Positions 6,923-31,807 of a stretch of 31,807 bases of DNA are shown in pieces. The stretch comes from Sistotremastrum niveocremeum HHB9708. Taxonomy: Eukaryota > Basidiomycota > Agaricomycetes > Sistotremastrales > Sistotremastraceae. The notes below the pieces were generated by a model. It did no database searches, was not told the DNA's origin, and saw only the letters and a list, made by a program, of their open reading frames with translations. The DNA is taken from assembly GCA_001630475.1 (NCBI GenBank), contig KV419466.1, forward strand, positions 9,624 to 41,430, written 5' to 3'. The position numbers and the translations under genes were made by a program. Each line of letters begins with the position of its first letter. Positions within the stretch are counted from its first letter, which is position 1.

Positions 6923-8399
6923 ATGTCTTTCGATATACTAGCGCTCGAGATCAAACATATGATCATAAAAGACGTTGAACTGGACACCATCGGTCCCGAC
7001 ATCTCCATAGACCTTCGGTTGGAGAGAACGCTCGCGTTGACTCATGTGTATGTCATGTTCCCCCCATGTCTTCTATTCTTCTCACCAGTCTATCAGCAAT
7101 AGGGCCTATCGTGCAGCAGCGCTGTCGTATCATAGCTTGTGGTCGACCATATACTTGGAGTGGCCAGAACCAGTAGTTCAGCACTATCTGGAGCAGGCTC
7201 GACGGCGTACTCAACCCGACATCACCGTATCCTTGGATCCTCGTTCTTCAGGGACAGATGATAAAAGGAAGAACCACAAACGCTGGGCTCAGTTTCTGAA
7301 AGCAGAAATGAAAATAATTCGCGACTTGAGGGTCAAGCTTTACGCCAATCATCACAGTCCAGCCGTTTCCAAGGCCATCAGCAACACTCCAGCTCCCCGC
7401 CTCGTCTCATTTACACTCGATCTCGATGAGAAGCAACTCCGCAACAACAACAGTCTTCAGCTTTTCAAGAACGATGCCCCGAACCTGACCTCCGCACGTA
7501 TACACGCTTGCAGGCTTATCAACGGCCTTCCAGATTTTCCTTCTTTGGCGGAACTTCTTCTGAGAGTGACCGAGAATAATCTTCCGGGGCTATTGGACAT
7601 GCTGCGAAGGATACCGAGATTGACACACTTATCCTTGAAAGGGGCCAATCGCTGGGATAATTCACCACTTCCTATACACGACCCTGCGCTCGAAACCGTT
7701 ATCCTCCCATTGTGCAGGTCGCTGCTCATTTCCTTCATGACAGCTCATCGAACTCGCTACATCCTTTCCCACATCGACTTGCCTGCTGTTACCCATCTTG
7801 ATGTCCGCGAGACAATTGTCGAGGATGAACATGGCCTTGTCGCCACGATCTTCGATACTCTACCCAAACTACCCAACCCTCCTCCTCAGTCAGAGCCAAG
7901 AGACTGGATATTTATTGGAATTCGCTCGGATCAACTTGCAATCCAGTTCCTTGGTTACCGGTTCCAGACTCAATGGACCAACTTCACCTTCGCAACAATT
8001 GCAGACGCCAACGTCGCCGCCAATACCCTATTTACTCTCATCGTCGATGCCGTTTGCGCTCCCGCGGACATCCTTTTACTCCAACCGACGCGTCTATATA
8101 TTGAAAATTCGATTACTCTCGATGAGGGAGGCGAACTATTCATGGGTTTAGATGATCTCAGGGTGTTGCTGGGCGATGTTTTCCACACATATCCATCGAT
8201 CCAAACGCTGTCACTCTCAGGCAATACTGCTCCTATCACGCGGGCACTTCACTTCACTTACCCGGACCTGCTTCCGAATTTGGCTTTACTAGATCTTCAG
8301 ATTAGCGAACGCGGTAATCTTCCTGGAACTTACGATGGTCCATCGCTCGCCTTGCTTCAACGTAGTCGACATCTCGAGATAGACAACCAGCTGATTTGA
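6923..8399 (+). CDS. F-box / LRR-like protein, two exons, 473 aa
   Basis: Exon 1 is 6923-7047 and exon 2 is 7103-8399. The 55-nt intron has donor GTATGT, a CTCAC branch-like site and acceptor ATAG; its phase-2 joining makes one frame of 473 codons. The ATG at 6923 follows a pyrimidine-rich leader (TCGCCATG). The internal ATG at 7044 lies next to the donor and is not the start. Residues 1-65 form an F-box-like domain: LALEIKHMII, then LTHVAYRAAALSYHSLWSTIYL, the usual pattern of agaricomycete F-box proteins. The remainder has leucine-rich, LRR-like segments (LTSARIHACRLINGLPDFPS, LTHLSLKG, IQTLSLSGN). Such proteins normally recruit substrates to SCF ubiquitin ligases through Skp1; that role is family knowledge and the substrate is unknown. 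The frame is intact. A remnant of a paralogue's C-terminus lies at 15902-15967, so the locus belongs to a duplicated family. Confidence 0.87.
7048..7102 (+). other. Spliceosomal intron of the F-box gene
   Basis: A 55-nt GT-AG intron with donor GTATGT and acceptor AATAG. Removing it joins ...ALTHV to AYRAAALS in phase 2 and completes the F-box. The downstream frame happens to stay open through the intron, so a naive call would wrongly start at 7044. Confidence 0.85.
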
Positions 8400-8761
8400 T
8401 GATGGTGCACTGAGCCGGCGTCTTTTCCCCACACTTCGTTGGTCCGATATTCGACCACTTTTTTGTTTTCTTTTTCCATGACAGTCCGTGGTCTTTCCAA
8501 AGCTTGCAAGTCAAGATTCAGATTATGTTCCAGGTTGAACCCATACTTTTCTTCAGCTGTTTTATTAGTAATGTTGTCGGTTACTCTCAAGTCGAAAAGC
8601 ACGTCATCTCGATTAAAGCGCGCTACCATGAATGGGTGGGAGAGAGAAATATTTAAATAGTGACTACTACGAGATCCACAGCATGTATTTGGAGAGGAAA
8701 GGATCGGATGCAGATACAAACATGCAGTCCAAGATTATCACGCGACCCTTGTCAGAGCTCG

Positions 8762-8767
8762 AATAAA
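8762..8767 (+). promoter_or_regulatory. Possible polyadenylation signal AATAAA
   Basis: AATAAA lies about 360 bases after the F-box stop. The related tails keep an AATAAA at 16349-16354 (unit II) and 31452-31457 (unit IV). Fungal poly(A) signals are loose, so this is only suggestive. Confidence 0.3.
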
Positions 8768-8826
8768 AAATAAAGCGAAAAACTTCGCAGATAGAAGTGC
8801 AACGGGATTGATTGCAAGCCACGCAA

Positions 8827-10526
8827 CTATGCCCAGCGTTGCTGATAGACGTTCATCGCAGCATTGGCCAGAGCCCGCCACCTGTCTCGTTCGTTTTGAG
8901 GTAGTACTAGTGGAGGGTGACCGAGGCTACGGGTGAAAGACGACTAGGCACACCATGATCAGTCTCGGTCGCCATGTCTCTGAACATACAATAGTTACTC
9001 ACTTGGGGGGGTTTGATTGAGCTTTGGCCGGTAATGTCTGGGACGTGGAGTGGGTCGCCGAAGGACTCGATGCAGACGCTGAAGATCCCTACGTGGAGTC
9101 CCTCGCTTTTGCGCTCATCGATGGAGAATAGTGAAGGTTGGGATCTGTAGCCGTGCGGATCGCACGACCGAGGCGCATCCAATTTCGATCTTGAAATCAT
9201 CGATGAGCGGAGACGGGGCAGAGTGACAGGAGGATGCATACTTGGACAACTCGAAGTAAAATTTGCGGGAGATGAGAGCGTCGCCTGCGCGAAGCTGGGA
9301 ATGAGACATGAGAGTTTGATGAGGTGGTGGTGGTCTGGCATTGAGCGGGATACGGTGGCACGGACGACTGTGACGAGAAAGGGAGAGTAGAAGAATGTCA
9401 TTTCGGGGGTGTATACTGCAGGGCCAATTAGCGAGACGGAAGAATACCATATCGTTAGTCTCGATCGAAAGAAGAAATGGGAGAGGCTTACCTTGATAAC
9501 TTGAACACACGCTGTGAGCGATTCTTCGAGTTCCTTGACGCCGACCAGACCTCTCCTCATATAATCCGAAAGATTCTACGTCTCCAAACAAATCGCAGCG
9601 AAGGATTCGCCTTGGGATCTACATCCATAAATTGATCAGCTTCATGCTCGTTACAGAAAGGAAAGACATACCGGCTCATCGAAAAGCAACTGTATATATG
9701 TCATGAGTGGCTAATCAATCCGGATTGTTGACGATACATACCTTCGACGGACAGTGCATTGAGTAGCACGAACAGGGAGACAGTTGATGGGTGCGGAGGA
9801 GATCCCCACCAGACACAGGACAAGCCGCGGCTGGTCTCCCAGTCGACGACAGATCCCGTCTGGCTGCTGCCATAGAGGCAGCCACTTCAGCTCAGCTCAC
9901 CTCTCGCCGTCGACAATCAGAACTGCCTAAGCAGAATGGTCGTTTGAACTCAGGAACATACACAGCGAGAGGGTCTGCTCCCGGACCCAGGAGCAGAGAG
10001 CTCACAAGCAGCCTTGCGGCTGCTGCGAGAAGGGCCTTGTTCCCAACAGACACGATGCATTCTATAGCTGGAACCCCAGTCCATAGAATGTCGCTCTGTC
10101 TCAGGTCGACTCACCCGTCACCGTCGACAATCAGAACTGCATAAGCAGAATGGTCGTTTGAACTCAGGAACATACACGGTGACGGGGCCTGCTCCTAGGA
10201 GCAGCGAGCCCACAACAGCCTTGCGGCTGATGTGAGAGGAGGGAACAAGAAAGGATGGGGGACTCTTCCGATAGTGCGAAACTACATATCCTTTCGACGA
10301 GCTGGGGTTGAACATTCAAAGAACGACGATAGCAACGGACAGCCAAAGCAGACGCACCGACTTGTACATTCTGGAATATATTTTTTTGGAGGGGAGACGA
10401 CCAAGAGTTCCAAGAGAAACTTGCAGGCCAGCAGCGGAAGACTGAGCGGAAGCAGGAGCGGAATCGGAAGTCGAGCTCGCGACCACCCATCCTCTTGACT
10501 CCTTCAATCGTGGTATCGGTGCGCAT
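8827..10526 (-). CDS. Intron-dense unknown gene, unit I copy (integrity uncertain)
   Basis: From an ATG at 10526, minus-strand splice sites define candidate exons 10358-10526, 10286-10301 (16 nt), 10178-10226, 10115-10136, 9964-10022, 9901-9922, 9742-9863, 9672-9689 (18 nt) and 9492-9618, then one or two exons down to a possible TAG at 8827-8829. Introns are 37-92 nt. Copies in units 0, II and IV share most of these boundaries. The downstream part encodes SIDERKSEG...GIFSVCIESFGDPL here and SIDERNSEE...GIFSVCFESFSNPL in unit II, and many differences are at third codon positions. A tail reading RDRWRALANAAMNVYQQ is also shared. The 22-nt exon meets a stop in the simplest joining and an extra C near 9010 shifts the frame. 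This copy may therefore be decayed, or my joins are wrong; an alternative start is an ATG at 9873. No family recognised. Confidence 0.4.
10060..10088. repeat. Conserved 29-base imperfect palindrome in an intron
   Basis: This 29-base segment is identical to 3973-4001. Outer arms TTCTAT and ATAGAA enclose inner arms CTGG and CCAG. The surrounding intron has diverged between units 0 and I, so complete identity over 29 bases is notable for intronic sequence. Confidence 0.75.
10199..10214. repeat. 16-bp perfect palindrome CTGCTCCTAGGAGCAG
   Basis: Equivalent to the hairpin at 4105-4130 but without a loop. The same 16 bases occur at 17678-17693 at the right edge of the assembly gap. It is followed by the small CAGCC/GGCTG stem. 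Confidence 0.8.
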
Positions 10527-11065: not shown

Positions 11066-11767
11066 TTAAAATACTTGTGCTATGATTTGTTTCATTCTTG
11101 CGCGGACAGTAGAAGGTTCAGCCTTTGCAGTGCTCGTGAAGGCTGCACTAACGATAGTGAAGACGTTGGCGTGGAACGCGTTAGGAGCGGTCGCCGGGCC
11201 ACTTTGAGATGCTGAGGCCCCGCATTCGGCTTGTGGAGACGTAGCACGGTGCAGGAAAGGCATTGGCACTCTCCTCGTCGTAGCTCTCCCCTACGATCAT
11301 TTCTATACCGCGGTCAGCCACCTTTATCAGTAAAAATGAATTGGCGGACTTACCTCTGAGGACATGTTCGAGCGCGCTGATGGCCATTGGATTACTGGCA
11401 ACTTTGGTATCGATCCTAGTCAAGAAAAACTACCACACTCTCATCAGCACTACATCGAGACAGTGCCGGGCGAAATCGAACGCACTGGATCGGCATCGTC
11501 ATTAGAGGGATTAGCAGGCTTACTCTGCTCCTTGCCCCTCAGTGACACATTCACGCATTTCTTCCCTCTCCTTTTCCTTCTTCTCTCCGATCCCTTCGGA
11601 GAAGGGACGAGCATTGCCGAGGTCAGCGTCTTTGTAAGTCTAGCTGTTAAGCTGACCGAGAAGTCCGTAGACGACTCAAACCAAGAATTCGACACTGGGG
11701 CCGACAAGATGTGAACCAAGGATGAGAAGAATATAAAAGAGTTTTGTTGATTTTCGAGTTCAGACAA
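11066..11767 (-). CDS. Possible three-exon gene for an unknown protein
   Basis: A minus-strand model: an exon from the ATG at 11767 to about 11527, encoding SELENQQ...GKKCVNVSLRGKEQ; an intron from GTAAGC (near 11526) to TTCTTGACTAG (near 11420); a short exon ending at 11354; a second intron beginning GTAAGTCC and ending either TATAG or, 12 bases later, CGTAG; and a last exon ending TAA at 11066. The later acceptor gives an Ala/Thr/Ser-rich C-terminus ending MKQIIAQVF. The earlier acceptor gives other short endings. The first exon has a basic cluster, SERRRKRRGKK, that could act as a nuclear signal. No family is recognised and frame choice at both junctions is uncertain. It lies in the unit I-specific segment. 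Confidence 0.25.
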
Positions 11768-12385
11768 GTTTTAGCAGTAGAGAGAGGGATTGGATTGGTA
11801 CTCTACATCGGTCAATACATGCATGTACTTATAGTAATTCGAATGCAATTAACTAACCAATGAAAAAGTGTGAGAGAATTGGCCTGGCCAAGGCCTACAT
11901 GAATGATGACAGGAGGGGTACGAAGCAACAGGATTTCAATACAAAAGAGCCGCGCAATAGACATATTGATAGGGGCATTTCACAGTGTCCAATAGTCGAA
12001 TAGCTCGACGTCTTCGATGGCGGATCCTTCAGAGAAAGGGGAGTTTGGGGAAAGGTGATAAGGCCATTTATAAGATGATGACGTCGAAACATGTGGGAAA
12101 GATGAATAAGACGATGACTGAGCACATTGGATCGAGATGTCGACTACGAATATCGAGGAATAAGGAGTGAGGGTGTCCATTTCGAGTGTGTCGGCGATGT
12201 GGAGGCTGGATGGGGACATTCGGGGGTTGCGTGAGAACGCGAAAGGAGCGGGATGGCACGTCGTAGGATTGATGTATGGATATATTGGATGTCGAGGACG
12301 TAAAGAGTGACGTTGAAAGGAGAGTGAGTGGTCGAGACGATGATGGTAAACGAAGTCGAAAAGGCGTAGGTCGGAGTTTGAATTC
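11768..12385. other. No convincing gene
   Basis: Several overlapping minus-strand open frames of 63-84 codons (11895-12398) are Ser/Pro-rich and do not join into one model. They show no recognisable motif. It may be non-coding or part of an inserted element. Confidence 0.35.
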
Positions 12386-12403
12386 TCAACGTGATCACGT
12401 TGA
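12386..12403. repeat. 18-bp perfect palindrome TCAACGTGATCACGTTGA
   Basis: A perfect 18-base palindrome centred on GATC, near the right edge of the segment found only in unit I. It could be a regulatory dyad or an element-end structure. The sequence alone does not decide. Confidence 0.8.
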
Positions 12404-12499
12404 CTTTAGACGCTGGGCTCGACGAAGCAAAACGAAGACGAAGAATAATATGAACGACTCAACGCTGAGCTAAGGTAGGATACCTTACAGTCTTCTTCA

Positions 12500-14400
12500 T
12501 CTTCTGACGAGGAATGGCAGTCGCCCCATCCAACCCTATTCAAGAACCGCATCGTCATAGCCAAATTCGTAGCTTCTTTGACTGCCGCAGGACTCCTGCG
12601 CTTCATCAGCCTCGTCGTTTCTTTGGCAATCATCGAAAGAGAACACACTCTTGGGGATACCGGGAAACGAAGGCCATATGACTTCTCCTCTCCTCTTCTC
12701 GAACCGATCAAGGACTTTCAAAACGGCTCGTTGAGAGTAATTGACATGACAGCATCTGAACAAGTATATGCCAGGTGCGGAGCGGTAGTTTGAGGCTATC
12801 AGATCACATGCCACGGAGGAAAAGGAGGCAAGAGAGATGTTAACATACAGGTACTGAGATGTGTGACGGAGGTAACAGGCGTCAAGTCAACTGACGTCGA
12901 TGAGAATTGCATATTGGGCCATATTGGGAGCTGCGAAACGCCGCGAAGGCGCACTATCCGCTCCCATAGGCTATAGCCAACGTCGGAAACGTTGGTATCT
13001 GAGAAATCCGACAAGCTTAGACAGTGCAGCGCGAGACTGATCGGTTCACTGAGTGAAGGTGTTCATTTAGAGGATTCTGGAAAGGAAAACGCTCCCGTGG
13101 CGCTGATTGTTGGCGCAGCTTGAATGGAAACGATGAGAATAACATCAATCAAGACTATTAAGCTCACTAACGAGAAATGGGGATCCATGTTCTCTTAGGT
13201 TTCTATGACCAGGGCTGGGGACCGAATTAAGGACGGGCGTTCTCACAAGGGGACTAGAAATAGACTGCGATGTAGGAAATGTATGACAAAAGTCCCGACA
13301 GAGCTGTCAACCTTTGAATTGCGGCTATAAATCATCGTTGAACGTACCTGGCCCAGGATGCTCTCGTGGCACGTCGTCGATCGCGGCGGCCCCAATGACA
13401 GATCCAGCGACGGCATCTCTTCTTTGACCTTGAGGGAGTTCTGGTGCCCATATGACATGGAAAGCCGTCCCATGATCTGACCCTGGCTTGTGGATGTCGG
13501 AAAGCGATGCGGCTCGGAAGGCCAGATGGAACGTCTAAGGTGTTGATTGGGCTTCGGCGTGATCAGCAGAACGCTGTAGGACAATCCTGGAGCTGTGATA
13601 ATCTCTTGTAAATGAGGAGGAGGACGATTGATGAGTGGGCATCCATATGATACTGCAAGAGGATGATCGACTCTTTCCAAAATGCGTTTAACTCCATCAA
13701 CTTCGCAACCATAGCATCTAGTACAAGGGTGAGGCTTTCTTGTAAGATGAGAGGCAGCGGCGTGCGTACCAGGTAAGTCATGGCCTTCAGAGTCCAGATC
13801 ATCACTGATTGCTACACGATGGCACTTGAGTTGGAGCTTCTTGCGGGCATGATGCACCGAATATCGCGATTCTTGAGGCATAGGGGACCGCAGGCTGCAT
13901 GCCACCTCAGCGATGCTAGTGCAAAATAATTGAAATCCATAAAACGAATGAAAGCGATTGTGCCACGGTGACGCCTGGTGATCAACATATTCTGATGACG
14001 ATAAACAGTTGACCTACTGTACCAGCGAGAGATAATCATGATTATCCCATCGCCGGCGCCGTCTGCCACCTTACTCTCCCGTGCTTGCTTGATCACCGAG
14101 AAGAGGTTATTTCGAATGGCCTGTTGCCGAAGCCAAACGTCGAAATCAGTGATCGATTTACGGCTCAACGGTCAGGAGGCACTACTTACCATTGTTCTCG
14201 GTATTGTCGGCAGGATTATCTGAACTTCTGGAAGTCAAGAGAGTATATGTCTGCTCAGACTCTTCAAACCGCCGCGACGCAAATGGACTCGAAGCTGCGC
14301 ATTTCATGCAAGTCTTCATTGCAGCCAGCGGTTTTTTGATGTGTCGGTTTAAAAGATGAGCAATACATCTGAAGATAGGGTCGCCAGCCTTTGAGCTTTG
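12500..14400 (-). pseudogene. Second minus-strand multi-exon remnant, unit I copy
   Basis: Intron-like intervals recur at matching places in the three units. One is a GTAAGTAGTG donor at about 14190 with a GGCAACAG acceptor about 70 bases on, matched near 29918 in unit III. Another is a 48-nt interval before GCGTCACCG. A third is a GTACGTTC/GTAAG donor near 13350 following a segment that reads AGSVIGAAAIDDV here, AGSVVGAAVFDDV in unit II and PGSVVGAAVLASV in unit III. A Gly/Ala-rich stretch of that kind could be membrane-associated. A CxxC motif (TCMKCAASS here, TCVDCAASS in unit III) also recurs. Reading frames are broken by stops in every copy in the joins I tried. Function unknown. Confidence 0.35.
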
Positions 14401-14452
14401 AGGCCTGTCGGATCCCTACTGACGTCGACGACGGTCAAGAAAGTCTGGGACA

Positions 14453-15067
14453 TTGATGACTAAGCAATACGGCTTTCATCGTTCTGAGTCCTCGGTATTG
14501 CCAATATCTATATCTGATGACTTATCCTACGATGAATTTGCGTCAGTCGTTCCAAGAATGTGCATGATTTGGATGCCTCTACTCAATTACTCAGATTTTC
14601 GTTTTGACTTGGCTTTTACGGTCATCGGTCGCGTTCCCGGCTCGAACAAAAGGCGACTTCCCAGGTCGATGACCATGGAATCTTCTTGTGTATTCAAGGC
14701 TGATGCAAGGATCAGGTGCGATGGCTTGCGCACAATAATACTGTATTGGAAAGCTGAGGTCCTATCGATGATCATTCAGGCCGAATACGCTCTTGATTTC
14801 ATCAAAGCATTGCGGCCCATCATGTCTCCTTGGTCGTTTCTCTGGACTCAAACGTACCGATCATCGCAATTTGGCCTTCGAAATGTTACCACTAAATTAT
14901 TATATAGTCGAAGCTCAGATGGGCATACCCCCTCCCAGAAGATGGGTCCGAAGCGCGTTTCCATCGTGCATCAAACGGAGTCCCATGCAATATATCTCTC
15001 TTCTCTAACAAAAAACCTTCGCAATACTAAATTTGTTCGTCAGATGCCTTTGCGACGAATCTTATGA
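14453..15067 (+). CDS. 204-codon open frame, partly matched in unit III; coding status unclear
   Basis: An open frame with ATG at 14453 and TGA at 15065-15067. A central stretch, YWKAEVLSMIIQAEYAL, is matched by YWKAEVLSMIMQAGNAL in the unit III frame at 30284-30592. Outside that stretch the two diverge and units II and III contain stops. The opposite strand is also partly open here (MIIDRTSAFQY in unit I, MIIERTSAFQY in unit III), so I cannot say which strand, if either, was coding. No known domain. Confidence 0.2.
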   Translation: MMTKQYGFHRSESSVLPISISDDLSYDEFASVVPRMCMIWMPLLNYSDFRFDLAFTVIGRVPGSNKRRLPRSMTMESSCVFKADARIRCDGLRTIILYWKAEVLSMIIQAEYALDFIKALRPIMSPWSFLWTQTYRSSQFGLRNVTTKLLYSRSSDGHTPSQKMGPKRVSIVHQTESHAIYLSSLTKNLRNTKFVRQMPLRRIL

Positions 15068-15517
15068 CCGACGGACTTGCAGTAACCCACCTCACCTCCT
15101 ATCCTTCGGGTTTGATGCACGACTTCGAAGAATACTACCTTGTCCCAACTTATGACTCGCATGCCGAAAATAAGTTCTCTATGCCACGCCACTTACCTGG
15201 ACCGTTCTGATCCTCCCGTGGCATCTGCAGACAACCTTTGTGCGAAGAAACCGGATTGGAAGACCGACGGCTCGCTTCGTAGGTAAGTGATTACATGAAT
15301 CATCTATAATCGGTTTTCAAGGCCAAATGTGCTCTCAGATCATTTGATCCACTGCCCCTTCGCAATCAGCGTCAAATAAGTCACGTCGTAATTGGAATGA
15401 TTCACCGCCCTACCACCAGCACCCCGAAACAGCAGGCCCACCAAAGTCACACTCGACAAAGAGCTTCTCCTTCAAGTTCGTCTCACAAAATCCGCTGCTA
15501 CTATATTCGACATCACA

Positions 15518-15841
15518 TCAATGCCTCCATTCATTCTTCAGATCAAGGAGGAAAGTTCTATCCGTCGTCATCACCTTCGATTTGGTCATCGTCACTCTCG
15601 AAACCTCATGTGTGAACAACAGCGTCACTAGGGCCCCTTTCCCATCAAAAACGAAGATAACACGTCCGTAGCCAAGTCCTTCAATCAGCACCCAGTCCTG
15701 TGAAGTCTTTTGACCGAGCTGCACTCTCTTCGATTGATAAGGTGTCAGAAGATGTACTCGCCTTGGGCGATATCGGGCGTTATTTGTGAGCTCATTCGTC
15801 ATATAAAGTGATTCCCGCCTCCGTCTGATTCCACTTTTCAA
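15518..15841 (-). CDS. Hypothetical protein of 107 aa
   Basis: A single open frame from the ATG at 15841 to a stop at 15518. It has a basic N-terminus (SGIRRRRES) and a well-composed middle (DWVLIEGLGYGRVIFVFDGK) with alternating hydrophobic residues. The left part (15518-15600) overlaps sequence shared with units II and III, but the stretch containing the motif was not found elsewhere in the window. No family was recognised and no splice sites extend it convincingly. Confidence 0.22.
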   Translation of the reverse strand: MKSGIRRRRESLYMTNELTNNARYRPRRVHLLTPYQSKRVQLGQKTSQDWVLIEGLGYGRVIFVFDGKGALVTLLFTHEVSRVTMTKSKVMTTDRTFLLDLKNEWRH

Positions 15842-15901
15842 AGCGCGTTACTAGTAAAGCCTTTAAATAACTTGAATTGACGATGATACTTGTGATCTCA
15901 C

Positions 15902-15967
15902 GATGGTCCATCGCTAACTACACTTCAACGTACTCGACACCTTGAGATACAGAACCAGTTGATCTAG
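15902..15967 (+). pseudogene. C-terminal remnant of an F-box paralogue
   Basis: Twenty-one codons plus TAG (15965-15967) read DGPSLTTLQRTRHLEIQNQL + I, against DGPSLALLQRSRHLEIDNQL + I at the end of the intact F-box gene. Many differences are silent (CAT/CAC, CTC/CTT, CTG/TTG, ATT/ATC, TGA/TAG), so the paralogue was once under protein-level selection. The frame is closed just upstream and the rest of the gene is absent here. This fixes the left edge of unit II. Confidence 0.7.
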
Positions 15968-16390
15968 AGATGGTTCTCGGCACTGGTATCCTTTGGCTAT
16001 CCTTGGTCTAATTTTTTGCCCCTTTTCGCTTTCTTCCTCATGACGATCCGCTGTCTTTCCCAAGCTCGCAAGTCGAATTCGGGCTCTGGTTCAGATCGTA
16101 TCCAATGCTTCCCTTGAACCGTTCTAAGTTACTAGTAATGTTGTTGTTTACTCTGAAGCCCAGATGCGCGACATCTCGATCACAGCGTGTTACAAATGAA
16201 AGAGAAAATGAGTGGGCGAGAAGAAATATGCTAAATAATAAATACTACGAGAGCCGCATCCTGCGATTGCACGGGAATTCGGACACAGATACAGCTAGTA
16301 TATGAAGAACGCAGCCCAAAACAGTTGCATGATCGCGGTTATAGCTCCAATAAAGCAAGAAACTTTGAAAAAACAGGAATGTAACAGAAT
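15968..16390. other. 3' flank shared with the F-box gene and with unit IV
   Basis: Non-coding sequence resembling 8400-8830. Its right part (about 16190-16390) is closely matched at about 31305-31494 in unit IV. It includes AATAAA at 16349-16354. No frame of note. Confidence 0.5.
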
Positions 16391-16394
16391 AAAT

Positions 16395-18040
16395 TGCCTA
16401 GCATTGCTGATAGGCAAGCATTGCAGAGGCTAAAGACCGCCACCTGTCTCGTTTGACTTGATTCGCGGTAGTGGAAAGTGGTGAAAGATGACTAGACACG
16501 CAAGGCACATAGCGATCAGTCCTCGGTTGCCATGTATCAGAACTTGAATATATACGCACTTGGAGGTCTCAATCGAGCTTTAGCCGGCAAATGTCTCGAA
16601 TGACGAGAGGGTTGCTGAAGGATTCGAAGCAGACACTGAAGATCCCCTCCTCAATTTCTTCGCTGTTACGCTCGTCGATGGAGGATAGTGAAGATTGATC
16701 CCTGAAGTCATGCGGATCGCACAACCGGAGCNNNNNNNNNNNNNNNNNNNNNNNNNNNNNNNNNNNNNNNNNNNNNNNNNNNNNNNNNNNNNNNNNNNNN
16801 NNNNNNNNNNNNNNNNNNNNNNNNNNNNNNNNNNNNNNNNNNNNNNNNNNNNNNNNNNNNNNNNNNNNNNNNNNNNNNNNNNNNNNNNNNNNNNNNNNNN
16901 NNNNNNNNNNNNNNNNNNNNNNNNNNNNNNNNNNNNNNNNNNNNNNNNNNNNNNNNNNNNNNNNNNNNNNNNNNNNNNNNNNNNNNNNNNNNNNNNNNNN
17001 NNNNNNNNNNNNNNNNNNNNNNNNNNNNNNNNNNNNNNNNNNNNNNNNNNNNNNNNNNNNNNNNNNNNNNNNNNNNNNNNNNNNNNNNNNNNNNNNNNNN
17101 NNNNNNNNNNNNNNNNNNNNNNNNNNNNNNNNNNNNNNNNNNNNNNNNNNNNNNNNNNNNNNNNNNNNNNNNNNNNNNNNNNNNNNNNNNNNNNNNNNNN
17201 NNNNNNNNNNNNNNNNNNNNNNNNNNNNNNNNNNNNNNNNNNNNNNNNNNNNNNNNNNNNNNNNNNNNNNNNNNNNNNNNNNNNNNNNNNNNNNNNNNNN
17301 NNNNNNNNNNNNNNNNNNNNNNNNNNNNNNNNNNNNNNNNNNNNNNNNNNNNNNNNNNNNNNNNNNNNNNNNNNNNNNNNNNNNNNNNNNNNNNNNNNNN
17401 NNNNNNNNNNNNNNNNNNNNNNNNNNNNNNNNNNNNNNNNNNNNNNNNNNNNNNNNNNNNNNNNNNNNNNNNNNNNNNNNNNNNNNNNNNNNNNNNNNNN
17501 NNNNNNNNNNNNNNNNNNNNNNNNNNNNNNNNNNNNNNNNNNNNNNNNNNNNNNNNNNNNNNNNNNNNNNNNNNNNNNNNNNNNNNNNNNNNNNNNNNNN
17601 NNNNNNNNNNNNNNNNNNNNNNNNNNNNNNNNNNNNNNNNNNNNNNNNNNNNNNNNNNNNNNNNNNNNNNNNNNGCCTGCTCCTAGGAGCAGCGAGCCCA
17701 CAACAGCCTTGCGGCTGATGTGAGAGGAGGGAACAAGAAAGGATGGGGGAGTCTTCCGATAGTGCGAAACTACTTATCCTTCCGACAAGCTGGGATTGAA
17801 CATTCAAAGAACGACGATAACAACGGACAGCCAAAGCAGACGCACCGACTTGTACATTCTGGAATATATTTATTGGAGGGGAGACGACCAAGATTTCCAA
17901 GAGAAAGGCAGGTCAGCGAGCTGGTCAGCGGCGGAAGACTGAGCGGAAGCAGGAGCGGAATCGGATGTCGCGCGTTGATCGTAGCGACGAGCTCGCGACC
18001 GCCCATCGACTCGCTCAATCGTGGTATCGGTGCGCATTCC
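16395..18040 (-). pseudogene. Intron-dense unknown gene, unit II copy, interrupted by an assembly gap
   Basis: The right part (17675-18040) repeats the start of the gene. From an ATG near 18034 it reads TSDSAPASAQSSAADQLADL then PFSWKSWSSPLQ before a TAA, followed by the same ATTCCAG acceptor, the same GTGCGTC intron and a 16-nt exon as in unit I. The left part (16395-16731) holds the SIDERNSEE...GIFSVCFESFSNPL block and the tail KRDRWRSLASAMLAYQQC. The middle is unknown sequence. The TSDSAPASAQSSAA-to-PFSW frame agrees with unit 0 but is shifted in unit I, where indels around 10435 lie between the two motifs. Confidence 0.4.
16732..17674. other. Assembly gap (943 N)
   Basis: The flanks match unit I at about 9174 on the left and 10197 on the right, so unit I predicts roughly 1.02 kb of missing sequence. 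That missing part includes the duplicated exon pair, which would be hard to assemble. Long open frames called across this run of N are artefacts. Confidence 0.97.
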
Positions 18041-18399
18041 TCCTTATTGTGACTTGGATAATATACTTGGATTGCTCAGATGAGCTGTCCGATGTTTCCC
18101 CTTCAAACTGATTTTTCTAGCGATTTTCACCCCAACCCCGACAATGGGAACTTAAATTTTCGTGATATATTCAATCTGGAGTTGACATGATTCTAGACCT
18201 ACACATTTGTACTTTTGATATCTTGCTTCAGGATTTTCTTTGTGTCCCAGACCCAATTTCATCAGCCTCTAGGATCCTTTCTCCTACTGCATCAGCAGGC
18301 ATATACTTTCTTTCCCCTCCTTCGTTCCCTCATTATTCTCTCCATCGGGATGAGCGAGTTCAGCATGTTATTCGCCGTCCGGCGAAGCATTGCAGTCTC

Positions 18400-20330
18400 C
18401 CAATCCAACCATATTCAGGAACCGCATCGTCGTAGCTAGTTTCGCAGCTCTTTGAACTTCATCAGCCTCGTCGTTGCTTTGGCAAGCATCAGAAGAGAAC
18501 GTACTTTTGAGAATACCGGGAAATGATGACAATATAGCTTCTCCCCTTGTATTCAATCATGGATGTTCGAAAACGGCTCGCCGAAAAGTATTAACGAATC
18601 AGCATTGAGGAGGATCAAGGACACAGCCGCTGCATCCTACTTATAACCCAAGCAAGTATGTGCCAGTTGCGGAGCGTTTGGGGTTATCATTTCAGATGAG
18701 ACGGAGGAAAAGGAGGCTAGAAAGATATGAGACACACAGGTACTCAGCCGTTCGATCAAGGTAAGGACATGCGTCAAGGCAACTGAGATCGACGAGACTG
18801 GCATATTGAAAGTGGTAAAACGCGCGACGTTGCACTATCCGCGCTCGTCACCAAGGAAGGAGATGATGATATGCGAGCAAGTCGACAAGCTCGGGAAATG
18901 CAGCGCCGGAATGATCGCTCATTTGGTGAGCGTGTTCAGATCGAGGAATCATGGAGAGGAAACGCCTTCATGGAGCTGCGGGTGGTCGCAGCTTGAATGC
19001 AAATGATGAGAATAACGTCGAGCGAGACTATTAAGCTCACCTACGAGAAGGGGGATCCAGATTCTCTTAGGTTTCTATGGCCAGTGATGGGGAGCGAATT
19101 CATGACGGGCGTTCTCGCGTGGAGCATAGAAAATAGGCTGCGATGGAAAATATTTATGACCAGGGTCCTGGTAGAATTATGAGCCCTCGAATCGCGGCTA
19201 CGAATCATCCTTGAGCTTACCTGGCCCATGATGCTCTTTTGAAACGTCGTCGAACACGGCGGCCCCAACGACAGATCCAGCTACGGTCTTTTTTCTGCCA
19301 GGTCGATTCCTTGTGGGTGTCCCGATGCATAGATCATACATGGAAGCCGCCGCATTAGTTGACATTAGCTTGCGGACGTCGGGGAGCCAAACGAGCCGAG
19401 AGGCCAGATGGAACGCGTGATATGTTGATGGGACTTTGGCATGATCAGCAGAACGCTATGGTGTGCTGCTGGAGCTACGATAAATTCGTCGATAACGCTT
19501 GGAAAAGGGGAGGAGCAGAGTTGAGGGTCGGACATTGGTTCTGCAGGAATCGAGAATTGGCTCTTTCTCGAGTGATTTGGAGTGAACCACCTTCACATTC
19601 GCGGTATCTACTCCAAAAGTGAGTCTTGCTAGGAAGAATGGGTCACTGTGGCCGACGTACCAGACAATTCACAGCCAGAATTCGACCTTCCATCATTTGC
19701 TTGACCATGTGACTTGTACCAGAACTTCTAGCATAATACACTAGCATCCTGACTCCTAGGAGATCACAGGCTGAATGCCACTCGGCAATGATAGCGTCAT
19801 CTAATCGATGTCCACGAATGCCAGCGATCATGCTGCGTTGACGCCTGTGAGCAAAACATTCTTAAGAACATATATACATCACTCACGAGTAAACGAATAT
19901 CATGGCCGACGCAAAGCCTCTACCGCCTGCCTCCATAATTTCCCGTGCTTCCAGATAGACTGGTGCCGGCGCCCAACCTCGCAATTCGCGCCCTGTTCAG
20001 AGCTGGGTAGTCGGGAGTCACTAGTAGTGTTTTCGGTGCCGTTGATAGTTCATAGGATAACCAGAACCTCTGGATTTCCAGAGAGCTGATGTCTGTACAG
20101 TCCCACACGGCCAGTCTTCGAGCCGCCTCAACACGACTGAAGTCGACAGTGAGCGGAGGGGCCATCCGTATCAGTATCCGCACATCATCTACAAGTCTTC
20201 ATCGCAGCTAGGGGACCTCTCACTGTGGAAATTGGGCATTCTTTCTGAAGATGGTGTAGCCAGTACGAGGGCAATGAGAGCTTGATGGATGTCGATGACT
20301 AAGCAATACGGTGCCTCATCGTTGCGAGTC
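18400..20330 (-). pseudogene. Second minus-strand multi-exon remnant, unit II copy
   Basis: It is collinear with 12500-14400. The Gly/Ala stretch reads AGSVVGAAVFDDV just upstream of a GTAAGCTC donor near 19220. Frames are broken by stops (for example between 19640 and 19830 on the minus strand). It is best viewed as a decayed copy. Function unknown. Confidence 0.35.
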
Positions 20331-20914
20331 TGACTGCTAAGCACTGAGTACTAGGGGTGAGTCCTCGCGATTCCTAATATCGATCTACTAAGTAATTTCC
20401 ACGCAGTAATATCATCCGTTAAGGCAAACCCTTTACAATTCATCAGAATGACCGATTGGCTCAAACATTATCGCTATCACTTGGCCATCCGTTTCGCTTC
20501 CAGCATAGCGAGAGGCAACTTCCCTGAATGAAAAATGGGATGCCTCTCTTGATTATTCAGGCTTGACGCGAAGGTTAAGGTGCGATTGTTGGCACTTGAG
20601 AATATTGCATTAGAATGCTGAGGTCCTTTGATAATCATTCAGGCCAAATAACATCGGTTCTATACTGTTGGTTTCACCAAATTGTTGCGGGCCATTATAG
20701 TTTCCCTTGTCGCTGCTCTGATCCCCCAAACATACCGACCCATCTGGGGTGTAAACCGTTCCGAAGAGATACCACGAAATTCACTTGGACGAAGTTGGCG
20801 TGCCCCCGTCCGATAAACTGGATTCAGAACGGTGTTCTCATTGTGCCTCATATGGAGCGCATGCTTGTACAAAGCTTCTGGTCTATCGGAAACTCTCTTT
20901 GAGTTTGGACCTCT

Positions 20915-21525
20915 GCACCTTCAACCTCCAGCCTCGCTAGCGCCCTATACGTCGACACAACGACGGCACATTTAGCCCACGACAACCGCATTCTTTATCC
21001 CGCTGTGACTCCGAGCAACGAGGGCCCATTTTCTTTTGCAAATGGTTTCCGTCTCTCGTGACAACCCCCTCAAGTCAGTATGTTCTCCGCAGCGAATTGC
21101 GGTCAGTACGTACGACAGTTTAAAGTCTTTTGGTCGACCTTCTGACATGGTATTTGCAGTTTCAAGTTCTAACAGGGTCTCTTTCGACAAGCCTCTCTTT
21201 ACACCTACCATCGCGGACAGCACTACACTAGTGTTACGCCGTCATATGTATTACCTGAGGCAATGTAAATACTCATCCAGACTTATCATCGATACTAAGA
21301 TGGCCCTGCTTTCCCTCAGTCGGAACTGATCAGTTCTTTGTCTTTCGGACGTCCGGCCGTACCGTCTACTTTGCAATTTTGGTATCTTCTTTCGCGCGCA
21401 AGGTCTCGCCCTCCCTCGCTCTCAGAAACGGCATTCTCGGAAAATTGTGAACGCTACACCGAGCTATCCATACTGCTGGTGTCGGCCTCGCTTCGGGCGC
21501 AATTTGGCGCCGCCGCTCTGATCTC
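20915..21525. repeat. Sequence present only in unit II (about 0.6 kb)
   Basis: In units I and III the block matching 20620-20900 runs almost directly into the block matching 21530-21640. Unit II has about 600 extra bases between them. A 14-bp perfect palindrome, GAACTGATCAGTTC, lies at 21323-21336. No terminal repeats were fixed and no gene recognised. A small direct repeat (CTTGTGACCGAC twice) follows at 21589-21613. Confidence 0.4.
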
Positions 21526-22180
21526 CCATGTAACATGTTCCCTTCTTCAACAAAAGCCTTCGCAATACTAACATTGTTGGTCAGATGCCCTTGTGACCGA
21601 CCTTGTGACCGACCTACCAACTTTCAGCAGCTCAACCTCATTACCACCGTTCAAATGTGATGCAAGACAGCGAAGATCTCGTAGGCCTGAATTGTTCGAT
21701 TCTCGCGTCGAAATACCCTCTCCGTCGCGTGCCACTTTATATGGTCTTCGCATGACATTTGCAGGTCACTTTTGCACGAAGAGAATCGCTCGAGAGATTG
21801 ACCGCTTGTTTGGAAGGTGAGCAGTTGTGTCGATTGTTTTCGATCCGAAGTCAATATATCCACAGATAATTCGACTTCACCAACCGTTCGCAGGCAGCGC
21901 GAAAGAAGTCTCTCCGTCATTGTAATGAATCTACGCCATCATCGAGCCCAGCACGTTGAGACAGAAGATCCCTTCGAATCACGCGCGCCTTGGGCTCTTC
22001 GTTCAAGTTCGTCTCACCGAAATCTTCTGCTGCCCTTACATTTGGCGTCACACCAACGCCGACACCGACTCAGCGAGAGAATCAGGCGCAGAAGACTCTC
22101 GCTTACGCTTCGTAGTCCAAAGACGGGGCCGAATTTCGACATATATGCGTTACAAAGTACGGTCGCCTCGACGTGATTCG

Positions 22181-22435
22181 TGGCGACTCACAGGAAGCTC
22201 TGCTCATATGTAAGTATGTGCGCATATTCAAGAGACCCAGTACATCCGATTTTAACGCAGAATGCAGATCTAACGAGTTAACGACATCACGCACCATTTA
22301 TTCCTTTAACGAGAACAAGCATCCCAAGAGGAAAGCCTCAGGCAAGCTGCGTATGAAGAGATGAAGGAAGAGCTTGAGACGTAGTACGACGCGGCTGACG
22401 GACTGTCCAGTGTCCCTGTTTGTCAGTCAAGGAGA
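22181..22435. other. Transition from unit II to unrelated sequence; no gene seen
   Basis: Similarity to units I and III fades after about 22180. Short overlapping frames only. The region upstream of 22436 probably acts as promoter for the following gene model. Confidence 0.35.
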
Positions 22436-22443: not shown

Positions 22444-22484
22444 CCTTGTTCCAAGGAACCTACATATAGCAAGCACTGATAACG

Positions 22485-26190: not shown

Positions 26191-27159
26191 GATAGTAATC
26201 GGCTCAACCGTCGTCAAGTGTTGAGCCTCCTCTGGACTCGTTCAAGCATGCTACCGGTGCGCGTTCCTCCTTATTGTGTCTTCGATGATATACTTGGGTT
26301 TCTCAGATTAGTTGTTCAATATCTGCTATTAACATCAAATTTTCCAGCGATTTTTATCCCCCAACCGCGAACTCAATGGGGAACTTGGAATTCTCATCAT
26401 TTATTCGATCCTGCACTAGACATGATCCTAGACCTCCATGTTCGTACCTTTGATATCTTGCTTCAGAATTCTATTTGTGCTCCGAGCCTGGTATCATCAA
26501 CTTTTAGAATCCCTTCTCTGCCTTCAGCCGCGGCGAAACCTGTAAAGACCAACGAATGTCACGCGATGAGAGAGGCCGACTGACTAGGGTCGATGTGGAC
26601 CTTTCCGCCTTGCTTTCCGCAATCGCGTTACTTGCTACAGATCAGAAGTTGTGCGTTCCGACGAAGAATGGCTGTCTCCCACTCCAACCATAGTCAAGAA
26701 CCGCATCGTCGTAGCCAGTTTCGCAGCTCACTTGATCAACGCAGCTCTCCTACGCTTCATTAGCCCCGTCGTTTCTTTGACAATCATCTATGTTTGGTCT
26801 TCATCTTCATGTTCCAGCAGTAGAGAAAGGAGGATGATTAGTATACAATATATTTTAGTAGATTAGACCGATTAGTATTGTTTGCAATGGTCAGATAAGG
26901 TGATGGGCATTTGCCCGCAGTTGGACCGCGCGACAAATATTCGGGGAGCCAACTCTCCTGCCCTTGAGGATGGACCGAACCGAGACACCCATATATTAGG
27001 AACAAAGTGACGCGGACGGTGAGGGAATCAGTAGGCCATTCAGGTATGATAACGACGCAGAGGGCAATGCACCATCTACCCCTATACTAGGAGTTAGAAA
27101 GACCTGGATGTTAAGTGCGGGGACTCAGGGATATATAGCTAAGGAATGCATCCTTCTTC

Positions 27160-28275: not shown

Positions 28276-28289
28276 GTCACATGTGTGAC
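28276..28289. repeat. 14-bp perfect palindrome GTCACATGTGTGAC
   Basis: A perfect dyad centred on CACATGTG, an E-box-like word, about 110 bases after a TATAAA (28162-28167) and about 105 bases before the right edge of the insertion. It could be a transcription-factor site in the element; function not shown. Confidence 0.6.
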
Positions 28290-28399
28290 CCATACCACAT
28301 AGACACCATTCTACTCTAGTTTGTTCCTCGTGTGTTTGTCTTCTCTACTCGTTCCTCGTGTTCGACTCACTGCTCGTCTCTACCTGCGTAGAATATCAT

Positions 28400-30210
28400 C
28401 TAAAGAGAACGTACTCTTGAGAATTCCGGGAAACGATGGTCATATGACCTCTTCTGTTCTGGAATCGCTCAATGACTCTTGACAACGGCTCGTCGAAAGG
28501 GATGAACAGGACAGTATTGAGTGAGGTCGAGGACACAGGGCATGTATCTGGATTATCATCCAGACAAGGATACGCCAATCACGGAGCGGTAGTTCGAGGC
28601 TATCACTGAACATGAGACGAAGGAAAAGGTGGCAAGAAAGATATAAAACATACGGGCACTCAGACGTTCGACGGACCCGGAGGTAAGAAGACGCTTTAAG
28701 TCAACCGATGTCGATGTGAATTGCATATCGAAAGTGGCAGAACGTCCCAACTTCGCGCTATCCGCTCCCATGTTCGAGATGGGAGACGATGATAAGTGAG
28801 AAAGTCGACAGGCCCAGAAATGGCAGCGCAGGCCTGATCGGTTCATTCAGTGAGCCTTTTCAATTAGAGGATTCTGGAAAGGGAAATGCTTTGATGGCGT
28901 TGATTGTGATCGCAGCTTGAATGCCAACGATGAGAATGACGTCAGTCAACATTCTTGAGCTCACTGACCAGAAGCGGCGATCCAGGTTCTCTTAGGTTTC
29001 ATTAAATCTTCATGACAAAGATCCTAGTGAAATTAAGAACCTTTGAATCGCGGCTACGAATCATCCTTGAACTTACCTGGCCCATGATATTGTGCTCGAA
29101 CGCTGGCGAGCACGGCGGCCCCAACGACAGATCCAGGGATGGTCTCTCCTCTGCTAGCTTGATGTTTCGTGAGTGTTCTGGTGCATAGTTCATACATGGA
29201 AGCTGCCGCATGAGTTGATTATGGTGGGAACGTCGGGGAGCTTAGCGAATCGAGACGCTAGATGTAATGCGTGCTATATTGATGAGGCTTCAGCATGACC
29301 AGCAGAACGCTTATAGTATGATCCTGGCGCTACGATAATTGCTTGGAAGAGGGTAGGAGCACAATTGAGGGTCGAGCATTGACACTGCAGCATGATTGGC
29401 TCGTGCATTGGGGTGCGCGACCTTCGAAATCGGGGCATCTAGTACAAGAATGAGTCCTCATACCGAAAATAGGACGCTAAGGCCGACGTACCAGCTAATC
29501 CAGCCTTCAGAATGCAACTCTCCATGTTTTAATTCCGAGTTATGAGGCCACAGGAAATGGGACTTCTTCCGGGCATGTTGCACTGAGTAGATTGACTTCT
29601 AGGAGACCGGACGCTAGATGCCACCTCAGCGATGATAAAGCCACACAATTGAAGTCCATACGACAGATGCGAGAGATTACGCTAGTGGATGCGTCTGGTG
29701 AGCAAGATAATCCCAAGACGATGAACGCGTCACTCACAAGTAACCAGCGTCGCGGCCATCCCACCATTTCCACTGTCTGACAGCCTACTTTGCCGTATTC
29801 CAATCATGCTCAGGCCTCGTCGCTGATAAAGACGTAGTTTCAAATGAACTGTTACCAAAACCAAACGTCGAAATCAGTGCTCTATTCAAAGCTCAGTAGT
29901 CAGAGTCACTACTTACCATTGTCATCGGGATTGTTGATATGATTACCTGGACTTCTGAGACTCGAGGGAGGAGATGTCTCCTCCCCAAGTGTTGAAATCG
30001 CCCGACGCAACTGAACTTGAAGCTGCGCAGTCCACGCAGGTGTTCATCGCAGCCAAGATATTTTTCGGTGTGTTGGTGTGACAGGAGACCATTAGAACTG
30101 AGGATAGGGTGGCCAGCCTCTGAGATCTGCGCTTTGAGGCCCATTAGAGGGCGACTGGTGTCGACGACGGTCAAGAAATTCATGCTGACTAAGCAATAAG
30201 GCTCTCTCAT
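28400..30210 (-). pseudogene. Second minus-strand multi-exon remnant, unit III copy
   Basis: Collinear with 12500-14400. From an ATG near 30183 the frame reads NFLTVVDTSRPLMGLKAQ, then GCDEHLRGLRSFKF, to a GTAATC or GTAAGTAG donor (about 29918-29950). This 5' part is the most intact of the three copies. Downstream it has PGSVVGAAVLASV near 29105-29145, followed by a GTAAGTTC donor. The 1604-bp insertion separates its 3' end (26665-26790). Frames downstream contain stops. No family recognised. Confidence 0.35.
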
Positions 30211-31290
30211 CCTCAGTCCTCGCCATTGCCAATATCTATCTGATCACTTATCCTACGGAGAATCTGCGTCCGTCGTCTCAAGGGTGTGCATGACTTGCAT
30301 GCCTCTGTTCAATTTTACGGACTCTCGTTTCACTTCGATTTACGGTCACCAGCTGCGTTCTCAGCTTGAACGAGAGCCTACTTCCCAGATTGATGAGCAT
30401 GGTCTGGTTCTTGGTTACTCAAGGCTCAGTCAAGGGACCAGGTCCGATTGCTGGCGCTCGATAAAAGAGTATTGGAAAGCTGAGGTCCTTTCGATGATCA
30501 TGCAGGCCGGAAACGCTCTTGGTTTCATCGAAGCATGGCGGCACATTATAGCGGCTCTCGAGTCGTTGTTCCCGTTACTCTGGATCTCCTAACGTACTGA
30601 TCCATCTGGGCCGCAAATCGTTTCTTGAAGAGACACCACAAGATTACCCCAGTCGAAGTTCAAATCGGTATACCCCTCCCATAAGCTGGGTCCAAACGGC
30701 GTTTCCATCATGCATCAAAAAGAGCGCATGCCATCCCACAGAGTCGTCGGTCTGTAACTCATTTCCCTTCTCTACCAAAAAGCCTTCGCAATCTTAACAC
30801 TATTTGTCAGATGCTGTTATGACAGTTCTTAGGGCCGATCAACTTCCAGCAACCCACCTCCACTCATACTCTTGAATCTGAGGTCAGACGATGAAGATCA
30901 CCTTGTCCCATTCTCATGCCGAGTATACGCTCGTCCTGGTGCCACTTGTCTGGGCTATCATGATCCTCCCGTAGCGTCTGCAAACGATTTCGCGCAAACA
31001 GACGTTGGAAGGCCGACGAATCACTTGCAAGGTAAGCGAATGTGTCGAAGCCAATGTGCTCACAAATGATTCAACTCGCCACTCTTCTCAGTCAGCGCCA
31101 GAGACGTCTCTCCGTCATTGAGATGATTCGCCGCCGCCGCCGCCTAGACCGAGCACCCCGAAACAGCAAGTCCTCCAAAATCACGCTCAAGATCAACTTG
31201 ACAAAGAGCTTTTCACTCAAGTCCGTCTCACAGCAGTCCGCTGCTCCTATATTGGACATTACATCAATGCCTCAATTGAATGAGCGCCGT
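30211..31290. other. Right part of unit III; no intact gene
   Basis: It includes the 102-codon plus-strand frame at 30284-30592, which shares YWKAEVLSMI with unit I, and a 65-codon frame at 30872-31069 with a GTAAGCG donor-like site at 31032, matched by GTAAGTG near 15283 and GTGAGCA near 21818. The pieces do not join into a complete gene in any unit. Confidence 0.3.
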
Positions 31291-31807
31291 CAGCGGGATA
31301 GATGCAAATGAAACTGAGTGGACGAGAAAAATATGCGAGAAGTAAAACTACCGGAGCCGCATCATGCGTTCGGACGGGGACTCAGACGTAGATACAACTA
31401 GTATATGAAGAACGCAGCCCAAAATAATTGCATGTCCCTGGTGACAGCTCCAATAAAGCAAGAAACTTTGTAAAAACAAGAATGTAACAGAATAAATTGC
31501 CTAGCATTGCTGATAGGCAAGCATTGCAGAGGCCAAAGACCGCCACCTGTCTCGTTTGATTTGATTCGCGGTAGTGGAAAGTGGTGAAAGATGACTAGAC
31601 ACGCAAGGCACATAGCGATCAGTCCTCGGTTGCCGTGTCTCAGAACTTGAATATATACGCACTTGGAGGTCTCAATCGAGCTTTAGCCGGGAAATGTCTC
31701 GAATGACGAGAGGGTTGCTGAAGGATTCGAAGCAGACACTGAAGATCCCCTCCTCAATTTCTTCGCTGTTACGCTCGTCGATGGAGGATAGTGAAGATTG
31801 ATCCCTG
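31291..31807. repeat. Unit IV: start of a further repeat copy, cut by the window end
   Basis: From 31391 to the end it aligns with 16288-16704 at a constant offset of 15103 bases with no net indel. I count about 16 differences in 417 bases. It contains the AATAAA (31452-31457), the RDRWR tail and the SIDER block of the intron-dense gene. It presumably continues beyond the window. Confidence 0.85.
31495..31807 (-). pseudogene. Intron-dense unknown gene, unit IV copy, 3' part only
   Basis: It holds the tail KRDRWRSLASAMLAYQQC and the SIDERNSEE...GIFSVCFESFSNPL block, nearly identical to unit II. The gene's 5' part would lie beyond 31807. Whether this copy is intact cannot be judged here, so the pseudogene label is only a default. 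Confidence 0.35.

What the first reader, a model, noticed from the sequence alone, without database searches (positions are those of the whole stretch)
8335..31807. At least three and a half collinear copies of a long unit containing unknown genes
A dozen or more blocks recur in the same order in units I, II, III and the start of IV. The spacing is about 7.5 kb (I to II) and 15.1 kb (II to IV). The unit joins the tail of an F-box gene to two minus-strand multi-exon genes I cannot identify. Copies are well diverged except II versus IV. This is an amplified, decaying gene cluster not explained by an obvious transposon.
Basis: seen in the sequence. Interest (0 to 1): 0.75.

Follow-up and report, generated by a model that had tools for sequence, protein, structure and literature searches.

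The report
Structured RNA gene in decaying repeats
A wood-rot fungus carries worn-out tandem copies of a long DNA unit, and one part of that unit has kept its form and looks like a gene for a large folded RNA of unknown kind, so the array may hide a new class of fungal RNA.

Summary
The collinear repeats are real. Blocks a-b-c recur in order at 8326-15531, 15894-22327, 26226-31286 and from 31291, and further along the contig. The genome is probably Sistotremastrum niveocremeum HHB9708. Blocks a, c and d diverge like neutral DNA, with no codon signal in any frame, so the 'two minus-strand genes' are not protein genes as they stand. The F-box gene at 6923-8396 is under purifying selection.

Block b is the exception. 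It holds two tandem ~180-nt modules that fold, on the minus strand, into one branched structure. Support comes from compensatory changes, also against a tree-based null, from wobble pairs that favour the minus strand, from GNRA loops and from a conserved intron-like stretch. Block c shows no such signal. At least 19 loci exist; 16 of 16 read in full have two modules. Rfam has no match at its cut-offs. I propose a new family of structured noncoding RNA, kept by selection and homogenised by gene conversion in a decaying F-box array. Expression is untested and function unknown.

The parts
6923..8396 (+). F-box/LRR-type gene (one long ORF 7041-8396 plus an N-terminal piece 6923-7072); the part of the unit with protein-level constraint
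   Evidence: tblastn of Sistotremastrum proteins, 93% to a partial S. suecicum protein; dN/dS 0.11 and 0.15 against two C84 paralogues, synonymous sites saturated. No Pfam F-box match; the name is the source's.
8326..9170 (.). block a of unit I (tail of the F-box gene and its 3' flank)
   Evidence: 67% to 15894-16727; 66% (from 8628) to 31308-31800
9807..10250 (-). structured RNA of unit I: module 2 (10082-10250), module 1 (9858-10040), then a 3' hairpin domain ending near 9807
   Evidence: covariance model hits 195.5 and 151.8 bits (the model was built with these two among its 26 rows); covariation; 3' domain with GNRA loop; 92-100% identity to C28 in 100-bp windows starting 9754-10404, 63-91% in the other windows
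10302..10357 (-). predicted 56-nt intron upstream of the RNA modules (GTGCGT...CCCAG)
   Evidence: intron-like stretch in 16 of 17 copies examined, the 17th being cut by a contig end; inferred, no transcript data
3690..4176 (-). structured RNA of the copy left of unit I: modules 3995-4176 and 3769-3952; degenerate 3' domain
   Evidence: 134.6 and 156 bits; tail; predicted intron 4228-4283
17675..17729 (-). 5' piece of the RNA of unit II; the rest should fall in the N run
   Evidence: 26.4 bits; predicted intron 17790-17845
16732..17674 (.). N run inside unit II, where the rest of the RNA copy should lie
   Evidence: flanks align to 9170 and 10187 of unit I
12493..15531 (.). block c of unit I: decayed, no coding or structural signal
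15894..16727 (.). block a of unit II
18368..22327 (.). block c of unit II
26226..26573 (.). unit III: remnant of the flank of block b; no RNA module found here
   Evidence: 78% to 10490-10827; no model hit
28395..31286 (.). block c of unit III (its start, 26656-26788, is cut off by an insertion of about 1.6 kb at 26789-28394)
31291..31807 (.). block a of unit IV
   Evidence: 92% to 16183-16704
11633..12489 (.). insertion in unit I, solo-LTR-like (TGTAAG...CTTACA, GTCTT repeated at both sides)
   Evidence: empty site in C97; parts repeated on C23, C104, C42, C8 and others

Best explanation
The array is an old tandem amplification of a cassette made of an F-box gene and, on the opposite strand, a gene for a large structured noncoding RNA. 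In most units the F-box gene has been lost and the spacers (blocks a, c, d) drift as dead DNA. The RNA gene is kept. It is transcribed from the minus strand of the window, probably loses an intron of about 56 nt, and folds into two copies of a branched domain followed by a hairpin domain with a GNRA loop, about 440 nt in all. Selection keeps the fold. Gene conversion between copies keeps sequences of one class near-identical, which would also explain why the assembly tends to break there. Shown here by computation: the repeats, the neutral decay, the conserved fold, the favoured strand, the pairing of modules, the copy number. Inferred: transcription, splicing, selection on the RNA, and action as an RNA. 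The likeliest role is a folded RNA acting in trans (for example a protein-binding scaffold), since copies persist without an F-box gene beside them. Antisense control of the F-box gene from its 3' side is the alternative.
For: Fold: on the sequence-only alignment A2 (26 modules, 25 distinct), 92.3% of cells pair and 20 pairs change on both sides, against 11.1 sd 2.0 in shuffles (0 of 500) and 1-7 when slid; one of the five measures, further pair types, was not striking (50 of 500 shuffles reached it). Against a tree-based null on 30 distinct modules, the consensus energy is -98.8 against -54.9 sd 5.6 after refolding (0 of 200), with 21 doubly changed pairs against 4.9 sd 1.9 refolded and 9.5 sd 2.0 unrefolded (0 of 200 each).
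Specificity: sliding scans give z -2.2 to +1.9 over block c (6 rows), but down to -6.7 on the minus and -5.6 on the plus strand over the modules of b.
Strand: GU 138 against AC 42 on the minus strand; a structure derived on the plus strand still shows AC 75 against GU 36. The GCAA loop is in 26 of 26 rows of A2; the tail loop is GAAA or GAGA in 10 of 12 rows, counted by eye.
Copies outside the model: 4 of 4 modules at C48 and C42 score 132-159 bits.
Genome: 24 pattern matches (22 distinct modules), 0 with the reversed control pattern. 16 of 16 loci read in full have exactly two modules.
Constraint or conversion; the two-module stretch is 98% identical to C28 over 393 bp.
Spacers neutral.
Against: No transcript data exist here. 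All copies come from one genome, so constraint across species is untested. A per-pair test over all 17,020 column pairs with the same kind of null found only 1 pair at E<=0.05; with 2.9 changes per column it has little power. The percentage of paired cells alone was reached by 18 of 200 refolded nulls. High within-class identity could be conversion alone. Nothing shows which molecule the RNA acts on. Convergent F-box genes or fragments were seen at only 6 of 14 complete loci. Only 10 of 16 intron-like stretches hold a CTRA branch-like motif; those of units 0, I and II do not. The motif upstream of the RNA is not shared with this genome's U6 and U2 genes, so I dropped an snRNA-type promoter. 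The last hairpin of the module is gapped in 7 of 25 distinct rows, and the tail of unit 0 is degenerate.
Confidence: 0.66

Rival explanations
1. The whole array is plain dead tandem duplication. Block b looks conserved only because gene conversion is frequent there, and its hairpins are DNA palindromes without RNA function.
For: The identity peak around b between unit I and C28 falls off over 100-300 bp, as conversion tracts would. The V and unit-0 copies match at 95% from about 3792, while the d flank is at 60%. The plus strand folds too (z to -5.6). The rest of the unit is neutral.
Against: Conversion does not create compensatory changes between classes or the excess of wobble pairs on one strand. 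Classes more than 20% apart keep most of the fold, the loops and the intron-like motifs.
Confidence: 0.18
2. Block b is a mobile element or the structured end of one (SINE-like, or a leader of a retroelement) that spread in both orientations.
For: Copies occur on six contigs and on both strands.
Against: In units I and C28 the element sits at the same place of the a-b-c unit, yet it is far more alike than its flanks, which insertion cannot produce; the readable piece of unit II behaves the same. It carries an intron-like stretch. I made no systematic test for terminal repeats or target duplications.
Confidence: 0.09
3. Block b is an untranslated or coding part of an unrecognised minus-strand messenger RNA.
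For: Predicted intron. A public gene model, SISNIDRAFT_470071, overlaps one copy, C42a, though on the opposite (plus) strand.
Against: No codon periodicity in the b pairs. The ORF over copy C42a finds only that record of the same strain. Pfam finds nothing over its cut-off in 4 proteins from b.
Confidence: 0.07

Closest known systems
Candidate structured RNA motifs of fungi (PMC5640933, PMC8216456; listing, abstract openings and found passages seen)
   Same: Found by comparative analysis of covariation; one of them (ies6 motif) is drawn antisense to a gene because that strand keeps a GNRA loop (passage of PMC5640933).
   Different: The genome database of PMC8216456 is all Ascomycota (passage seen). 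'Basidiomycota' and 'Agaricomycetes' do not occur in the main text of PMC5640933. The present RNA has two tandem domains and is multicopy within one genome; I did not compare it motif by motif with those lists beyond the Rfam scans.
Large ornate bacterial RNAs (OLE, GOLLD, ROOL; PMC12286853, listing and abstract opening seen)
   Same: Large, multi-helix noncoding RNAs (their open functions are recalled).
   Different: Those are bacterial; no sequence or model relation was tested apart from the Rfam scans.
Tandem F-box gene clusters
   Same: Tandem duplication, gene loss and pseudogenes around F-box genes.
   Different: Known descriptions concern the proteins; an RNA gene riding in the cassette is not part of that picture as I recall it (one search gave a listing only, 10 of 212 papers).

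Membership tests
Any RNA family in Rfam 15 | Covariance-model match at the curated score | tested here: not met
   No match at gathering score over the window. At lax E-values around three copies: none at 9600-10800, best E 0.16 at 3600-4500 and 0.39 at a C84 copy, all below their gathering scores.
Structured noncoding RNA gene | Covarying fold beyond a phylogenetic null | tested here: met
   whole-structure test, 0 of 200 nulls; the per-pair test found 1 pair of 17,020
Structured noncoding RNA gene | Transcribed | not testable with these tools
   no expression data
Structured noncoding RNA gene | Conserved in another species | not testable with these tools
   No DNA of a related fungus was at hand. 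Pattern matches in viral (20) and bacterial or archaeal contigs (120, scan stopped at its limit) look like chance: 0 model hits in the 100 of these 140 stretches that were searched.
snRNA-type gene (U6/U2 promoter of this genome) | Shares the upstream element of the genome's own U6 and U2 genes | tested here: not met
   upstream of 5 of 5 listed U6 and 4 of 8 listed U2 matches read by eye; different motifs
Transposon-borne unit | Unit bounded by terminal repeats or containing transposase/reverse transcriptase | tested here: inconclusive
   No Pfam match over cut-off in 10 ORFs of the window or in 3 ORFs further along this contig; ORFs were a selection, and terminal repeats of the whole unit were not tested systematically.
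F-box protein gene | Pfam F-box domain | tested here: not met
   no F-box domain model among the hits for the ORF or for 3 relatives, only weak LRR and other hits below cut-off; 'F-box domain' comes from the source records

The most novel reading that the evidence does not exclude
A new class of large structured eukaryotic RNA: a spliced, about 440-nt, two-domain RNA often encoded head-on to F-box genes in Sistotremastrum. It is amplified to about 19 or more copies and kept alike by gene conversion, while the DNA around it dies. It may be the selected or selfish core that drives amplification of the array.
Probability: 0.5. Interest if true: 0.8.

Novelty: new variant of a known kind. Interest (0 to 1): 0.66.

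Why it matters
The fungal covariation screen whose methods I saw in passages used Ascomycota genomes only (PMC8216456), so mushroom-forming fungi may be poorly covered; that is my inference. A large, paired-domain RNA that survives in a field of dead duplicates gives a natural experiment: selection and conversion on the RNA can be read against neutral spacers of the same units in the same genome. It also warns that 'unknown multi-exon genes' in decayed arrays can be RNA genes.

Tried and rejected
Protein genes in the unit: stop-to-stop ORFs against Pfam and one ORF of block c against the protein collection (no hit) led nowhere. Rfam gave nothing at its cut-offs; ARAGORN found no tRNA. CpG-directed decay: CpG observed/expected is 0.94-1.08 in three copies of block c, so I dropped methylation or RIP-type decay. 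An snRNA-type promoter (box plus TATA-like stretch) was rejected after reading U6 and U2 upstream regions; the box fits a 3' splice site better. An internal Pol III B box was considered by eye only. The per-pair covariation test was too weak, and its script stopped with an error after the count was printed; I replaced it by whole-structure tests. Pattern hits in viral and prokaryotic contigs look like chance. Rows and columns dropped: one of 31 modules as an identical duplicate and 36 of 224 columns with half or more gaps; the V-C97 pair from the means; the C97 row from the block c scan; C42b module 2, C84d module 1 and the two cut copies not in A2; C42b (degraded upstream) not.

Full report
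Origin. The window is contig C73:9624-41430 of a 34.7-Mb genome in 111 contigs. The ORF at 7041-8396 finds 9 proteins, of which 8 are named and all 8 are from Sistotremastrum. One of them, from S. niveocremeum HHB9708, is 100% identical over 428 residues to contig C84 of this genome, and a second record of the same strain is 100% identical to an ORF of C42. I take the genome to be that strain.

The repeats. Self-comparison of the window and of the contig shows collinear blocks a (8326-9170), b (9655-10959) and c (12493-15531). They recur as unit II (15894-22327, with a 943-base N run), unit III (part of the b flank, then c, 26226-31286), unit IV (a at 31291-31807, then b flank and c after an N run) and unit V. 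A fourth block, d (about 1252-3700), recurs before other b copies. C28 holds a single a-b-c unit, and C97 holds b-c-d-b.

Decay. In the 30 aligned pairs of at least 400 columns printed, mismatches are spread about evenly over the three codon positions (single windows vary), and gaps are seldom multiples of three (for example 15 of 91, 15 of 84, 11 of 92). Translated comparison of block c finds matches in all six frames. The F-box gene is different: against two C84 paralogues dN/dS is 0.11 and 0.15, although synonymous sites are saturated. CpG is not depleted in block c. Insertions cut the units: 11633-12489 with TGTAAG...CTTACA ends and GTCTT at both sides, and about 26789-28394.

The exception. 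Between unit I and C28, 100-bp windows starting at 9754-10404 are 92-100% identical, and the other windows of the alignment 63-91%. The stretch holds two tandem modules. A profile found 30 module hits on the fetched parts of five contigs: 14 complete pairs and two pieces cut by the N run or a contig end. A pattern search of the whole genome gave 24 matches (22 distinct modules), against 0 for the reversed pattern. It added C48 and two more C42 loci, which makes at least 19 loci. Two of these three were read and again hold two modules each. If C97 and the end of C73 are two versions of one place (97% alike), the number is lower by one.

The fold. On the minus strand the module folds into: a hairpin CAGCC-GCAA-GGCUG; a closing stem GGCUC/GAGCC; a hairpin CUGCUC/GAGCAG of variable length; a long arm with invariant CGAC and GUCG and a variable hairpin, with UUCG in its loop region in 9 of 26 rows by eye; and a last hairpin GCUGCC/GGCAGC, gapped in 7 of 25 distinct rows. 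After the two modules follows a hairpin domain whose loop is GAAA or GAGA in 10 of 12 rows. Several helices change on both sides, for example CCAUUCAC/GUGAAUGG against CCCGUCAC/GUGACGGG (alignment).

Tests. With 26 modules aligned by sequence only, 64 cells change on both sides, against 22.7 sd 3.8 in shuffles (0 of 500); sliding the partner strand drops pairing from 92% to 31-50%; the count of further pair types was reached by 50 of 500 shuffles. Because related sequences inflate such counts, I simulated 200 alignments on the tree with the same number of changes per column. None reached the observed number of doubly changed pairs, with the structure kept or refolded, and none reached the observed energy after refolding; the percentage paired alone was reached by 18 of 200 refolded nulls and by 0 of 200 with the structure kept. 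A test over all column pairs found one pair at E<=0.05. Block c, scanned in windows with 6 rows, gave z from -2.2 to +1.9; block b gave down to -6.7 on the minus strand and -5.6 on the plus strand over the modules, and between -1.2 and +1.2 to their right. Wobble pairs favour the minus strand even when the structure is derived on the plus strand.

Gene-like features. Upstream of the modules I examined 17 copies. One is cut by a contig end. The other 16 have a stretch of 52-59 nt, by the script's choice of 5' end, that runs from GTGCGT (9), GTACGT (3), GTATCC (3) or GTATGT (1) to CCCAG, like a short intron; in C97a and C84d GTGCGT stands a few bases further out by eye. A branch-like CTRA is present in 10 of the 16 and absent in units 0, I and II. 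The conserved TTCAANCCCAGC was first read as a promoter box. Five of five listed U6 and four of eight listed U2 matches of the genome do not share it, and exact matches to the box plus an AT-rich stretch fall at 5 places, all at RNA loci.

Relation to the F-box genes. At 6 of the 14 complete loci an F-box gene or fragment ends within about 1.5 kb of the RNA's 3' end, head-on: unit I, three on C84, two on C97. At C42b an F-box-like match lies on the other side. So the pairing is frequent, not obligatory.

Assembly. The N run in unit II, the end of C73 and the start of C97 fall in or within about 100 bases of an RNA copy, and the N run after the window lies between flanks that bracket one. This fits near-identical copies that short reads cannot separate. 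A 100-base N run on C84 (25818-25917) is not at a copy, and the N run at the start of C73 cannot be placed. Whether N runs are gaps or withheld I cannot tell.

Literature. Searches for S. niveocremeum genomes, structured RNAs in basidiomycetes, F-box clusters in Agaricomycetes and Sistotremastrum with noncoding RNA listed 15 of 16, 10 of 92, 10 of 212 and 2 of 2 papers; none of the titles or abstract openings describes this RNA. I saw passages of PMC8216456 and PMC5640933 and the outline with abstract of PMC11234323. That Sistotremastrum is a wood-rot fungus is recalled.

Verdict. The reported repeats are real and mostly dead. Their interest lies in what is not dead: a probable new structured RNA family.

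Noticed in passing
C73 61.5-67.0 kb (window numbering 51917-57409) and C97:1486-7222: The two contigs are 97% identical over 4.8 kb from one sharp point, but about 75% before it, as if a crossover or conversion joined different units.
   Followed up: partly
C73:59267-61388 (window numbering 49644-51765): Two overlapping long ORFs (428 and 397 aa) beside unit V. The 428-aa one has no Pfam match; the other was not scanned.
   Followed up: partly
C84:11562-12645 and 18796-19879: An 89% inverted duplication of about 1.1 kb, each arm holding one RNA copy.
   Followed up: no
window:22300-26230: Parts of the stretch between units II and III match C13:55070-57730 (75-84%) and C42:287987-288951 (83%), so it may belong to another repeat family.
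   Followed up: no
C42:278.6 kb, L017:2667-3146: A public gene model (SISNIDRAFT_470071) overlaps an RNA copy on the opposite strand and the search found no other homologue; possibly a spurious protein.
   Followed up: partly
C6:389996-858216 and C5, C9, C30, C37: All eight listed U2 matches lie on C6 and the five U6 matches are scattered. The 4 U2 and 5 U6 copies read share upstream motifs within each set by eye (U2: CACGTG...TATATAA; U6: CACGCG...TTTCACAATC-like).
   Followed up: partly
window:27372-27880: Short tandem repeats (45-72 bp units) inside the insertion of unit III.
   Followed up: no
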